In this document: piece by piece, positions 10,995 to 34,100 of the stretch
Position numbering within the stretch: position 1 is the stretch's first letter
Layout of the letters: each line of letters begins with the position of its first letter
DNA from: Ceratobasidium sp. AG-K
Lineage: Eukaryota; Basidiomycota; Agaricomycetes; Cantharellales; Ceratobasidiaceae
Length of the DNA stretch: 64,000 bases
Assembly (NCBI GenBank): GCA_037039685.1
Contig: JAWNGF010000017.1
Coordinates: 124,001 to 188,000 of the forward strand
Direction of reading: 5' to 3'
Notes under the pieces: model-generated
What the model was told of the DNA's origin: nothing
Seen by the model: the letters and a program-made list of their open reading frames with translations, nothing else
The model's database searches: none
Made by a program: the position numbers and the translations under genes

Positions 10995-11917
10995 TCATTG
11001 TGTTTGAAAGTCATGCTCGCCCAACGTTGGCAAAAGCCCAGTGTCGGGTGTGATAATCCATGGGTCGCGTTGATGTAAGTGCGCACGCGGTTCACCTGGG
11101 TTTCGGGTGTCGCCACGTGAACCAAGGCGTTGCCACGCGTGTCCTGTCGTATTACTGCCCGTTCCCTCTGCCACACCACCTTGCCCCGCAGACGTGTCAA
11201 TGTCCATCGGCGTTAAGGCATCCCTGATCGACCGATCGAACGGCCAACTATTGCGCCAGTGATCGTCCCACCATGGCGGACGGACCCCAGATGGTGGCCA
11301 CTGGTGTGACTTCGCAGAATGTCCGTACTGACCGAGTGCATGAAGCGACTCTTCCCACATGTCGATGAAGTCGGTGTGCGGCAGCAGCATTGCATAGTCG
11401 CCATGGGGTGTGTCAAGCCAAACACACAGCTCGCTATTATCATGAGAACATACGAAAAACTGTGAATTCACTGATTGCACAACGACGACGGAATGAGAAA
11501 GAATTAATTTACTAACCCACCGCGGAATCGAAGGTCGCTTCGCGCTTCAATTGAACGGATACCGTCAATACGGCACCAAAACCAGTCGAGGTCATGATTG
11601 CCAAACCATCCACACTGGGCGAACAAACCCTCCTTGCCGAAGATTGTTCCAACAACGCCTATGACCTCAAGGCCATCAAATCGGCGCTGCAAAACCATGT
11701 CTTCGTTGAGCACAACAGGTACACCCTCACGCCGAAACTCAAAGAGGGTAAGTACACGCGTGAAGCCTGCCATAATGTCAATGTTAGACATCCAACGGCA
11801 GATACCTGCACACCTACGATCGGCTGGCCCAAGAAGAAGTTGTTCCTCCTGCAGGAGAGTCGTCTCTATATCTGCTGACTGACGGCTTGTACCAAGTGGC
11901 GCGTGCTCTGCATCCAT
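10995..11917 (-). CDS. RFTS (DNMT1 replication-foci domain)-like protein A
   Basis: Two main exons, 11917-11521 and 11470-10995, join through a 50 nt intron (donor gtgggt, acceptor atcag) and encode about 290 residues. An in-frame 51 nt stretch (gtaggt...ggcag, about 11829-11779) may be a further intron. The core runs RVLTLFEFRREG, EVIGVVGTIFGKEG, DWFWCRIDG and LCVWLDTPHGDYAMLLP, then an aromatic/acidic helix (DMWEESLHAL). This order of strands, with a W(L/V)xT..xYaxxxxP block, matches the RFTS/DNMT1-RFD fold as I know it and aligns along its length with protein B next door. RFTS of DNMT1 binds ubiquitylated histone H3. No methyltransferase or BAH domain follows. The family call is by motif only. 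The gene is divergent from B. Confidence 0.6.
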
Positions 11918-12211
11918 TGCTGTCTGAGCTAATATTTAAAGGTGGGTCGACAAATTAAGTTAACACCACACAATCCTCACTACAATGAATATCTTACATG
12001 AATTTACAGTTCGGGAATGTATACTATACAGTTGCAAGACGACTATCGATAGAGGAAAACAAGAGAAGAGTGAGCAACAATAAGGCACAGGGCTGCCAAA
12101 CACGCGCGTCAGATCACATGACTTGTACAGACGCATCACGTGCCTGGTAAGCAATCTCCTGCCCTCCATCACCAACATCCCTGCATTTCTTTGTTGTTTT
12201 TCGCTATCAAG
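11918..12211. promoter_or_regulatory. Bidirectional promoter between the two RFTS-like genes
   Basis: This 294 bp spacer separates two start codons pointing outward. It contains CACATGA at about 12115 and CACGTG at 12137-12142. Similar TCACRTGA words occur in the other divergent spacers of the cluster. Promoter function is inferred from position. Confidence 0.5.
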
Positions 12212-14773
12212 ATGTCGCATGATCTCGAAAGGTTTCAAGTCTTTCCTGAGAGTACGGATTTGGTGCCAGAGATGAACGCGCCACCCCTCCAAGATGGGCT
12301 ATGTAAGTGATATCATTAACCATATAAATCACAATAACAAAGTACCCACCCTAATGATAGCTCGCGTTCGGACGATTACCTGGTTTAAGTTCTACAAGAA
12401 GGGCAAGTACGTCAAGCCGTTGTACAATGATTCGACAGACGAGTTTTGGCGTGACGTTCGCATGGAAGGTCTTGTCGCGTCCCTGCGCGGCGAGTCCCGT
12501 AATCACATGCAAGGCGGCTTCTGGGATCTCGATGACTTTGGTGATATGCATTACGAGCGCATGATCATTACGGGTATCACTGGGATGTTTCTTGAGGCGG
12601 ACTCGTCGTGGCGCGATGGGTAAGTTTCATTGTTACACCTCCGCGCGATTCATTACAATCCCTCCTTTTATAGCACAGAGTCCATACTCTGGGTACATAC
12701 GAGAAACAACTATGCATATGTCATGCAAAACCCTGTGGACGAGTATGCAAACACCTGGCGGGTTGTCGTTCAGGACTGGAGCGAGCACCACGGGGGGCAG
12801 CCAGCAGGTTTTACGATGGTCGACCCTTCGCTACCAAAGCCGAAATGGTGGCACCTCGTGCGCGACTGGAACCACGTTCTGCAACGTCACCTTCTGGCAA
12901 GCAACACCGAGGAAGAGCCGTCGGACGGTGCAGGCGACGAAGTCGACACCGATACGCAAGCCACTTCGAGCAAATTGAAGAAAAAGTCGAAAGGGAAGGC
13001 GCCGGCGAGACAAGGGACGGGTGGGAGCGCCGACAACGAGCGGTCTGTGACGAAACCTGCGACGAAGGGCAAGGGGAAAGCGCGGGTCAGCACAGTTGGC
13101 GACGAGGGGCAATCGAACGCGAAGGAGGATAGCTCTGCGCGTCATGCGCGCGTGAGGAAATCTGCCGGTAGGAGTGCAGCCGCGAGGAACGATGTCGTGG
13201 ACGGCGGACGACCTCCGAAGAAGCGCCGGGTCGTATCGGCATCCACCATGGCATCATCTGCCGCGGGGCCAAGCTCTTCGTCAACAAGGGCTGCACAATT
13301 GAACCGAGCTTTGCCAGCACCCTCGACTGCCCAAGCACGACCGCCAGCGTCATTGCCACGGCCGTCCAAGAGGTCTGTGGTGTCGGCTGGTAAGACAGGT
13401 CAGCAGTCCGAGACTCTGCGCGACGGCGACGATGCTGACGCAACGACACAAGACCCGGGCCCGGCGCCAGAGCGTCGATCGCCAACGGGTTCTTCGCCAC
13501 CTGACACCACAGCCAACACTTCCACCGTCGTGCCACCGTCGGTGGTTCCCCATGATTGGCAGGAGCGGCGCGCATGCACGATTCGTGTCGTTCGCAATCC
13601 GACACTTGCCGCCGACGATGTTGCCGTGGGCTTGGGTGAGGCGGTGGGCGGTGATGATGCCACTGGGGTGGATGGTGCGTTGAACACATCAACCCCACCA
13701 GGCGAAGACACAGAGGTCTCTGCGGCGGAAGAAGAGACGGACAATCAAAGTCCATGGCCGCTGACGCAGGTGAGTTACCATCGCGTACATATTTTGTTGG
13801 TATAACGTATAGCACTGAAATGTAGATTCCGCGCATGACGCCATCACAGTCGACCGCTGATGGCGCAAACGACTCAGCTGCTGGTGAAGGCTACGAAGCC
13901 GACATGAGCATGAGCAGTCGCGACGAGGGAGGTAGGCAGCTTTGAATTATGGCGTTCGGACCGTGAAGCTGACGCAAGGTTCGCGGTAACAAAGTTGTCG
14001 CCGGGACAACCGGTGCTGGTACACCAGTTGCGTCGTCTTCGGCAAGCGCACCACAGGATGTCCCCGCCACACCGCCCGCGGCATCGTCAGGTTTGCCGAC
14101 CGGCGTGCCACCACCATCAGTGGCACTGGCTGCGGCTCCTGCTGAGGCGTCTGCTGAGGCATATGCTGCTGCCCCCCCCACGGCGATAGGTAAGTCCTTG
14201 CCCGTACCAAGCACAACACACACAGGAACGCCCTAATGTCTCATACAAATCACAGTCCTTCGTGCACATGCTGCACAAGTCGTTGGCGACGCGCGCCGTG
14301 TGCTCGATGATGGTTGGGCGCTCGTCGCAAGTGTCCAGCGTCTACTGGCTGGCGCCAGCACCGAAGATGTGCCGCGGGCGGGTGGTGTAGTTGTCATCCC
14401 GGATACACCGCCGCGAGTCGTCATTGACGCCGACATGCTCTCCGCGACGCCTGTTTCGCCCACTGTCGCGGCCGCCACTTCTGCCGGTGCTTCTGCCTCC
14501 GCTCCCGCTCATGGATCTACGCCGAGTGTGGATGCACATGCTGATCAAATGGACACCGCACAGCTGCCGCGCGATCAGCCGCGTGAGGCGTCGCGGGCTT
14601 CGATGCAACCGCGAGTGGCGATCGCGTCGGGGGGTATCCGCGAAGGCCGGGATTTGTCGCCAAGTCGCGCCGCTTGGCCGACGCCCGAGGACGACGAGCT
14701 TCGTGCGCGCATGGCTGACACAGACCTTGCGACACGTAGTGCACGGCCTGTGTGGCGAAGACGCGTTGACTGA
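12212..14773 (+). CDS. RFTS-like protein B with long disordered basic tail
   Basis: Six exons (12212-12302, 12361-12619, 12674-13769, 13826-13931, 13995-14189, 14256-14773) join in frame to 754 codons. The N-terminal ~220 residues align with protein A: VRTITWFKFYKKG, EGLVASLRGESR, GDMHYERMIITGI and ILWVHTRNNYAYVMQNP followed by DEYANTW. This is the RFTS-like core. The rest is low complexity: a Lys-rich segment with KKKSKGKAPAR and KKRRVVS, likely nuclear localisation signals, then Ala/Pro/Thr/Asp-rich disordered sequence. Short motifs such as VVVIPDTPPRVVIDADM (about 14385-14440) stand out in the tail and could bind partners. There is no catalytic domain. A nuclear chromatin-reader or scaffold role is inference. 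Confidence 0.65.
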
Positions 14774-33419: not shown

Positions 33420-33983
33420 GTGTGTGTCGAAGAGGATTATCGGCGACGGGTACGCGCCATTATATAGGCGTCTGTCATTGTTTGCACGGCGACGATAGCT
33501 TGGTATATTTTCAACCTTGTCAACACTCGGGCTAATCGCGTGCCTGTCCGCGTGTTCATGGTGTCATGTGAGATATTTCAACTGCTCGTCCCACCTTGGC
33601 TATGCGCATTTTTTACGTAGGTGCACGACCGGCGCCACTCGCAAGGGCATATTCGATTCCCCGGTCCGTTTCTGTAAGCGACCTAAAGGAGGTTAGCTCT
33701 GCTTCCTGCGACTAATTAGGCGAAGCACAAAAAAGCGCGAGAAGGATGGTGGCGGAGGATGCAACGCTCATAATATGGTAGCTATATAATCGATCGGCCT
33801 TGCCTAACCTCACTCCCCCATTCTCCGTGTTTGCCCTTTCAGACGGACGGACGATTAGTTGTGTCTCTCACCGTGGGTATTCTACCGCGCCTTACAAACG
33901 TAAAAGTCCATTGTTCTATCAACCACGCGGTGAGTCATCCTATGCTGGCCCATGTCACTTCATCCGTTGAGTGAAGTAGTGCC

Positions 33984-34100
33984 ATGGCGCAAGGGCAACC
34001 ACGTGATGCGGTTCTGAAGCCCGCCCTCGACGAGAACCTTCCTCCACTGGTCGATATGACGATTGAAGAGTGGTGCACAAAATTCGACGACTTGGCGCGA
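33984..34100 (+). pseudogene. First exon or head of an unknown gene, cut by the tandem array
   Basis: ATG at 33984 opens 39 coding-like codons (MAQGQPRDAV at the start, MTIEEWCTKFDDLAR at the end). The tandem-array sequence then begins at 34101 and brings a stop after nine codons. It lies 564 bp from the divergent sirtuin start and has CCACGTGA at 33999-34006. The joining sequence GTGTCA could be a weak splice donor, but the next 11.7 kb is repeat. The gene is probably truncated by the array. Its product is unknown. Confidence 0.4.

What the first reader, a model, noticed from the sequence alone, without database searches (positions are those of the whole stretch)
10995..34100. Accessory cluster of chromatin and DNA-modification genes
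Within 23 kb there are two RFTS-like proteins, a PHD-like protein, two sirtuins (one apparently dead), two RING ligases, a Tet/JBP-like dioxygenase and a novel repeat protein, with no unrelated metabolic gene between them. In animals RFTS reads ubiquitylated H3 made by a RING ligase, and Tet enzymes oxidise the mark that DNMT1 copies. The grouping of such functions could be an undescribed mobile or co-regulated epigenetic module. Seen: motifs and order. Known: roles of the families. Inferred: that they work together.
Basis: partly seen in the sequence, partly recalled or inferred. Interest (0 to 1): 0.9.

Follow-up and report, generated by a model that had tools for sequence, protein, structure and literature searches.

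The report
Telomere-anchored repeated chromatin-gene unit
The odd group of chromatin and DNA-modification genes is one copy of a large repeated DNA unit that starts at telomere-like repeats and has spread mostly to chromosome-end regions of this fungus, so it looks like a selfish or end-duplicating element that carries its own chromatin toolkit.

Summary
The cluster is real but is one copy of a repeated unit. In this 53.6-Mb fungal genome genes B, C and the Tet-like gene recur at eight sites in one order (longest exons of B and C 98-99% identical), plus diverged copies. The left edge is sharp: window 8941, at telomere-like TTAGGTTAGGG. Of 19 other left-end matches, 18 begin at 8941-8950, one begins inside, none enters the flank. 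The C1 tip is (TTAGG)n; its last subtelomeric 139 nt also flank a C3 copy. Right ends vary; two of five breaks located carry telomere-like repeats. The unit holds a Tet-like dioxygenase, an intact-looking sirtuin, a sirtuin-fold protein without the catalytic His, a RING protein and two RFTS-like proteins. The C3 copies add an unknown gene H and a SNF2-type helicase. dN/dS between unit families is 0.07 (C), 0.19 (folded part of B), 0.46 (tail of B). No transposase or reverse transcriptase was seen, but the scan ignored introns. RFTS is unproven (sub-threshold genome hits, both gene-B paralogs); one RING was found, a second not excluded. Best reading: a Y'/terminon-like unit spread by end addition or break-induced replication with a putative anti-silencing kit. 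Mechanism and cargo function are inferred.

The parts
8941..34099 (+). repeated unit as present in the window (25,159 bp including a 1,051-bp insertion)
   Evidence: left edge shared exactly by 6 copies with 5 different flanks; 3 other copies match to 34099 and continue beyond it
8941..8951 (+). telomere-like junction TTAGGTTAGGG, start of the unit
   Evidence: only TTAGG(G)TTAGG site in the 64 kb; 0.055 expected from 200 first-order simulations; C1 tip is (TTAGG)n
9137..10868 (.). 83-bp minisatellite near the left end, shared by the copies
10995..11917 (-). gene A, RFTS-like (exons 11521-11917, 10995-11470)
   Evidence: no Pfam hit
12212..14773 (+). gene B, RFTS-like plus disordered tail (6 exons)
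   Evidence: paralogs are the only PF12047 hits in the genome, E 0.04; dN/dS 0.19 in the folded part, 0.46 in the tail
15034..16814 (+). gene C, Cys-rich finger plus a domain shared with D and E (3' end uncertain)
   Evidence: dN/dS 0.067 over 388 codons
17455..17859 (-). possible repeat-like protein ORF
   Evidence: only, not modelled
18232..21166 (+). gene D, degenerate sirtuin + Zn finger + C-type domains (10 exons, 735 aa)
   Evidence: homologs in Ceratobasidium/Rhizoctonia
22526..23121 (+). gene G, RING + coiled coil (3 exons, 158 aa)
24069..26066 (-). gene F, Tet-like 2OG-Fe(II) dioxygenase (5 exons, 591 aa)
   Evidence: PF20515 E 4.6e-35
29472..30522 (.). 1,051-bp insertion, absent from the two C3 copies, many copies elsewhere
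31001..33368 (-). gene E, sirtuin with GAG/DFRS/TQNIDGL/MHG motifs; tail offset by 1 nt from D
33984..34099 (+). first codons of gene H, cut at the satellite
   Evidence: start placed; the ORF continues in C3
34100..45870 (.). 1145-bp satellite, about 10 copies, abutting the unit
46030..56975 (+). diverged, colinear H' + SNF2-type helicase genes (older unit type)

Best explanation
The cluster is the cargo of a subtelomere-enriched repeated unit whose inner end is anchored at telomeric repeats. Shown: one fixed left end that begins with TTAGG-type repeats; many copies at different sites; right breaks at different points; chromosome-tip sequence as the left flank of one copy; genes B and C under purifying selection. 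Inferred: a chromosome end healed by TTAGG repeats pairs with the telomere-like left end of an existing unit, copies outward by break-induced replication (or by an unknown end-directed transposition), stops at a variable point and is capped again. This resembles yeast Y' elements and rotifer Terminons. Inferred, weaker: the cargo (Tet-like dioxygenase, sirtuins, RING, RFTS-like proteins, SNF2 helicase) keeps the unit from being silenced in end chromatin, by oxidising 5-methylcytosine and by acting on, or decoying, silencing factors.
For: B, C and Tet-like genes in one order at eight sites on C1, C3 (twice), C4 (twice), C8, C11 and C17, plus a diverged set on C14. Left ends: 20 matches including the window; of 19 others, 18 start at window 8941-8950, one starts inside, none extends left. 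Flanks read in six copies show TTAG-type repeats; of three further left ends read, one has TTTAGG and two keep only TAGG or AGG. The C1 tip is (TTAGG)n, 16 units, and 139 nt of its last subtelomere match the C3 left flank at 98.6%. That subtelomere repeat is broken at three different points before three left ends. Of five right breaks located, two (both on C1) carry telomere-like repeats. The C14 contig starts inside the unit (E-tail match, 76-78%). 18 of 20 ends, or 11 of 13 merged loci, lie within 470 kb of a contig end; locus-level P 7e-5 against an upper-bound expectation of 0.30 (the 470-kb limit was set after seeing the distances). dN/dS: C 0.067, B folded part 0.19, B tail 0.46. H-type genes within 31 kb of B/C/Tet-like genes: 8 of 13 against 0.3 expected.
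Against: No enzyme that could move the unit was seen in the frame scans of the unit or of C3:84454-102453, so mobility may be passive; these scans ignore introns and missed known split domains. Orientation toward the nearest contig end is 15 of 20 ends but only 8 of 13 loci (P 0.29, ties counted against); the window's own copy runs the other way. 16 of 20 ends are 100-462 kb from a contig end and two are 0.65 and 3.7 Mb away. Neither C17 end nor the C14 start shows telomere repeats, so distances are to contig ends, not proven telomeres. Three of five right breaks give no telomere repeat: satellite in the window, a head-to-head fusion on C4, an unreadable one on C11. The outer end of the full unit was not found. 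C3 and C3b share their flank and are one larger duplication. RFTS is not confirmed. No expression or methylation data.
Confidence: 0.6

Rival explanations
1. Ordinary subtelomeric segmental duplication: host recombination spreads a stretch of end DNA whose genes serve the host, with no selfish unit.
For: No transposase or reverse transcriptase seen; C3/C3b and the old C4/C7 sets (equal scores) look like larger duplications; variable right breaks.
Against: One left end in 18 of 19 other matches with different flanks is sharper than random duplications give; several left ends without B or C hits nearby, some head to tail on C3 and C1.
Confidence: 0.27
2. A Terminon-like retroelement whose reverse transcriptase lies further out or acts from elsewhere; copies are made by telomere-primed reverse transcription.
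For: Left junction, truncated copies and head-to-tail left ends match the Terminon description (PMC6431247, passages read).
Against: No RT domain seen in the unit or the next 17 kb of the C3 copy (exon-blind scan); no hammerhead ribozyme; genes with introns lie on both strands.
Confidence: 0.08
3. A TET-bearing DNA transposon (Kyakuja, Zisupton, Plavaka or Helitron type).
For: Fungal DNA transposons are known to carry TET/JBP genes (PMC12730594, abstract and section 3.2 read).
Against: No transposase or Helitron domain seen in the scans; no fixed right end; left end at telomere repeats.
Confidence: 0.04

Closest known systems
Yeast Y' elements and fungal telomere-linked RecQ helicase regions (Ustilago, Agaricus, Magnaporthe)
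   Same: multicopy, subtelomeric, telomere repeats at the inner junction (that feature of Y' is recalled), a helicase in long copies
   Different: about 25 kb or more, SNF2-type rather than RecQ helicase, chromatin and DNA-modification cargo. Agaricus passages read in PMC7473861; Y' seen in search listings; the rest recalled
Terminons of bdelloid rotifers
   Same: long multi-gene units joined to telomere repeats, truncated copies in arrays
   Different: no RT seen and no hammerhead found (PMC6431247, passages read)
TET-bearing DNA transposons of fungi (KDZ, Plavaka and others)
   Same: Tet-like dioxygenase on a repeated element
   Different: no transposase seen, no fixed right end, many more chromatin genes (PMC12730594, abstract and section 3.2 read)
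Starship elements
   Same: large cargo-bearing fungal element (recalled; one paper seen in the search listing)
   Different: no captain recombinase seen; described from Pezizomycotina (abstract of PMC12289983 in that listing)

Membership tests
Tet-like 2OG-Fe(II) oxygenase (PF20515) | profile match above cut-off | tested here: met
   E 4.6e-35, 122 bits against cut-off 27
Sir2 family | profile match above cut-off, gene E | tested here: met
   90.5 bits against cut-off 24
Sir2 family | catalytic His, gene D | tested here: not met
RING finger (gene G) | profile match above cut-off | tested here: met
   39.6 bits against cut-off 27.9
RFTS (PF12047) | profile match above cut-off | tested here: inconclusive
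   A and B none at E<=1; the only genome hits, E 0.04, are B paralogs; structure model useless, pLDDT 37
Y'-like subtelomeric element | telomere repeats at the inner junction and copies in many end regions | tested here: met
Y'-like subtelomeric element | encoded helicase | tested here: inconclusive
   SNF2-type helicase in the C3/C3b copies and a diverged one right of the satellite; not in the window's young unit
Terminon | reverse transcriptase | tested here: inconclusive
   none, but scans ignore introns and the outer end of the longest copy was not reached
Terminon | hammerhead ribozyme beside the telomeric junction | tested here: not met
   Rfam at E<=1, window 8500-46000
KDZ / Plavaka / other TET-bearing DNA transposon | transposase | tested here: inconclusive
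   none in the exon-blind Pfam scans
Starship | captain tyrosine recombinase | tested here: inconclusive
   no such domain in the same scans; no dedicated search

The most novel reading that the evidence does not exclude
A new class of telomere-appended mobile element in Rhizoctonia-type fungi that carries a multi-gene anti-silencing kit (DNA-methyl oxidation, sirtuin and inactive sirtuin, RFTS-like and RING proteins, SNF2 helicase), adds itself to exposed chromosome ends, and rewrites end chromatin to stay active.
Probability: 0.3. Interest if true: 0.92.

Novelty: new variant of a known kind. Interest (0 to 1): 0.76.

Why it matters
If true, chromosome ends of these fungi spread a packaged set of chromatin and DNA-modification genes. 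That would link telomere repair, epigenetic silencing and selfish spread in one element, and it gives a natural system (near-identical copies, diverged families, inactive and intact enzyme versions) in which to ask whether elements carry their own epigenetic defence. It also warns that apparent epigenetic gene clusters near chromosome ends may be repeats.

Tried and rejected
Considered and rejected: (1) a unique co-regulated gene cluster: rejected because the set repeats. (2) Window 34099 as the unit's true right end: rejected because three other copies continue past it. (3) KDZ, Starship and retroelement membership: no enzyme seen; kept only as low-odds rivals because the scans ignore introns. 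(4) Rfam hits at 28318-28396 (microRNA families, far below gathering score): treated as chance matches to a palindrome.

Led nowhere: protein searches with gene B (none at E<=0.001); PDB sequence search with gene B (three unrelated hits, best E 0.36); AlphaFold of B from a single sequence (pLDDT 37). The domain shared by genes C, D and E reminded me of caspase/CHAT proteases (from memory, by strand order), but the displayed Foldseek and VIA rows were filled by the Sir2 part, so this stays untested. A 20-kb genome DNA search was not scored. No DNA-methyltransferase search was run, so the Tet substrate is unproven. Frame scans left out 8941-9000 on the plus strand and one minus frame of 8941-10900. 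Genome DNA searches scored part of their candidates: 36 of 175, 6 of 9, 40 of 78. Control genomes gave no hit for the three Pfam families (0 of 14), which says little here. Not in print: searches of an open-access library listed no such element in the rows shown; that library misses most subscription papers.
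Full report
WHAT WAS CHECKED. The window lies at 124-188 kb of contig C17 (613,648 bp) in an unnamed 53.6-Mb, 17-contig fungal genome. I spliced the genes by hand. Pfam on the spliced proteins gave a Tet-like dioxygenase for gene F (PF20515, 4.6e-35), Sir2 for gene E (1.6e-25), a sub-threshold Sir2 match for gene D (6.6e-4) and a RING for gene G (5e-10). Genes A, B and C had no hit at E<=1. So one Tet-like protein, two sirtuin-type proteins and one RING stand. PHD is not supported. 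A second RING was not found but is not excluded, because the frame scans without splicing also missed gene G's RING and gene D's Sir2.

IT IS A REPEATED UNIT. Searches of the own genome with PF20515, gene C and gene B each found eight sites in the same relative order and orientation: C1, C3 (two), C4 (two, inverted to each other), C8, C11 and the window. The longest exons of B and C are 98-99% identical there. A diverged set sits on C14 (gene C 84%, gene B 71%), gene B also on C7 (71%), and much older relatives (about 30-43%) on C4 and C7, with one C-type hit on C9.

EDGES. Alignment of the copies to the window stops at exactly 8941 in six copies (C3, C3b, C11, C8, C4b, C1 right end) with five different flanks. 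The edge begins TTAGGTTAGGG in the window and similar TTAG-type repeats in the others; it is the only TTAGG(G)TTAGG site in the 64 kb, against 0.055 expected. A search with 226 bases (30 of them left flank) found 20 left ends including the window. Of the other 19, 18 begin at 8941-8950, one begins inside, none includes the window's flank. On the right, C3, C3b and C4b continue past 34099, where the window copy meets a 1145-bp satellite. I located five right breaks. Window: satellite. C4a: near 33719, fused head to head with C4b (alignment coordinates only). C1 left copy: 28168, then TTAGGGTTAGGGTTAGG. C1 right-end copy: 11708, then GGTTAGGTTTGGTTTGGTTAG. C11: unreadable. So two of five carry telomere-like repeats.

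TELOMERE LINK. The C1 tip is (TTAGG)n. The Results of PMC7884421 report (TTAGG)n at Rhizoctonia scaffold ends, though its Methods name TTAGGG (passages read), and a Rhizoctonia cerealis paper used TTTAGGG (PMC12144256, passages). The 139 nt of subtelomere near the C1 tip match the left flank of the C3 copy at 98.6%; in C1 they are followed by TTAGTTAGG(TTAGG)n, in C3 by TTAGTTAGG and then the unit. The same subtelomere repeat is broken at three different points before three left ends (C3 main copy, C1 right end, C3:127147). Left ends lie head to tail on C3 and C1. The C14 contig begins inside the unit. Of 20 left ends 18 lie within 470 kb of a contig end; merged at 60 kb to 13 loci, 11 do (P 7e-5 against an upper-bound expectation of 0.30; the limit was chosen after seeing the distances). 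Orientation is weaker: 15 of 20 ends run toward the nearest contig end, but only 8 of 13 loci (P 0.29). The window's own copy and those on C11, C12, C4a and interior C1 run the other way. Neither C17 end nor the C14 start shows telomere repeats, so those contigs may be incomplete.

LONGER COPIES. Beyond 34099 the C3 copy carries a large unknown gene H and a helicase with SNF2 motifs (SNF2-rel_dom 0.0038, below cut-off; Helicase_C 6.9e-7, above cut-off). A 9-kb piece of this part matched in full only on C3 and C3b (40 of 78 candidates scored), and close H matches are also only there. C3 and C3b share the left flank, so they are one larger duplication. Right of the satellite the window holds a diverged, colinear H' and helicase at 46030-56975. 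A genome search with one H exon found 13 sites. With the 39 B/C/Tet positions I first chose, 8 of 13 lie within 31 kb, 0.22 expected; adding the seven Tet hits that I had left out gives 8 of 13 against 0.3. Duplicated sites inflate this, but three diverged families (C3, C9, C4/C7) keep H near a C-type gene.

SELECTION. Between the window and the C14 family, dN/dS is 0.067 for gene C (388 codons of exons 3-6, the last read to 16640), 0.19 for the folded part of gene B (160 codons) and 0.46 for its tail (273 codons); codons with gaps or stops were dropped. Synonymous distances are high (0.7-1.8), so values are rough, but protein function has been kept. Other genes were not tested. Gene E's tail is offset by one nucleotide relative to gene D (77 against 76 nt between shared anchors); it may be damaged or an assembly error.

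RFTS. One search gave no hit for A or B. Searching all 53.6 Mb with PF12047 at E<=10 returned two hits, both E 0.04 and below cut-off, and both are the C7 and C14 paralogs of gene B at the expected exon. This makes an RFTS relationship plausible, not shown.

MECHANISM. Shown: fixed left end at telomere repeats, variable right breaks, copies mostly in contig-end regions, selection on B and C. Inferred: spread by pairing of a healed chromosome end with the telomere-like left end and copying outward (break-induced replication), or an end-directed transposition by an unknown enzyme. No RT, transposase or recombinase was seen in the frame scans of the unit or of C3:84454-102453 (exon-blind), nor a hammerhead. 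Anti-silencing by the cargo is inferred from family roles; Kojima 2025 (PMC12730594, abstract and section 3.2 read) proposes escape from methylation-based silencing for TET-bearing DNA transposons.

COMPARISON. In junctions and truncations it works like Y' elements and Terminons. As a Terminon it lacks the hammerhead, and no RT was seen; it differs from Y' and RecQ subtelomeres in size and cargo. Nothing seen places it with KDZ-type or Starship elements. I call it a new variant of a known kind (telomere-associated element), with a 0.3 chance of being a new class.

Noticed in passing
window 34100-45870: 1145-bp satellite, about 10 near-identical copies, with related arrays on C9, C13 and C7 whose right flank is also shared with the window.
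   Followed up: partly
window 29472-30522: 1,051-bp repeated insertion absent from the C3 copies (clean empty site), with copies on C2, C3, C5, C7, C9 and elsewhere.
   Followed up: partly
window 60546-62410: Large near-perfect inverted repeats (574 nt arms, 98%; 190 nt arms, 93%).
   Followed up: no
window 28318-28396: Palindromic stretch that weakly matches microRNA models on both strands.
   Followed up: no
G000 C1 right tip (L081): Telomere repeat is the pentamer (TTAGG)n, while the interstitial tract at C1:77962 is TTAGGG.
   Followed up: partly
G000 C3:66454-84453 (L075, L076): Distal to the C3 copy lie LRR/F-box-like ORFs and a transposase-like ORF (by eye) and a further Tet_JBP match at C3:67037.
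   Followed up: no
window 1-8700: Ordinary-looking ORFs left of the unit, including one with a RING-like motif near 5.5 kb (by eye).
   Followed up: no
G000 C17:188975-189095: A second, diverged (85%) left end in opposite orientation just beyond the window.
   Followed up: no
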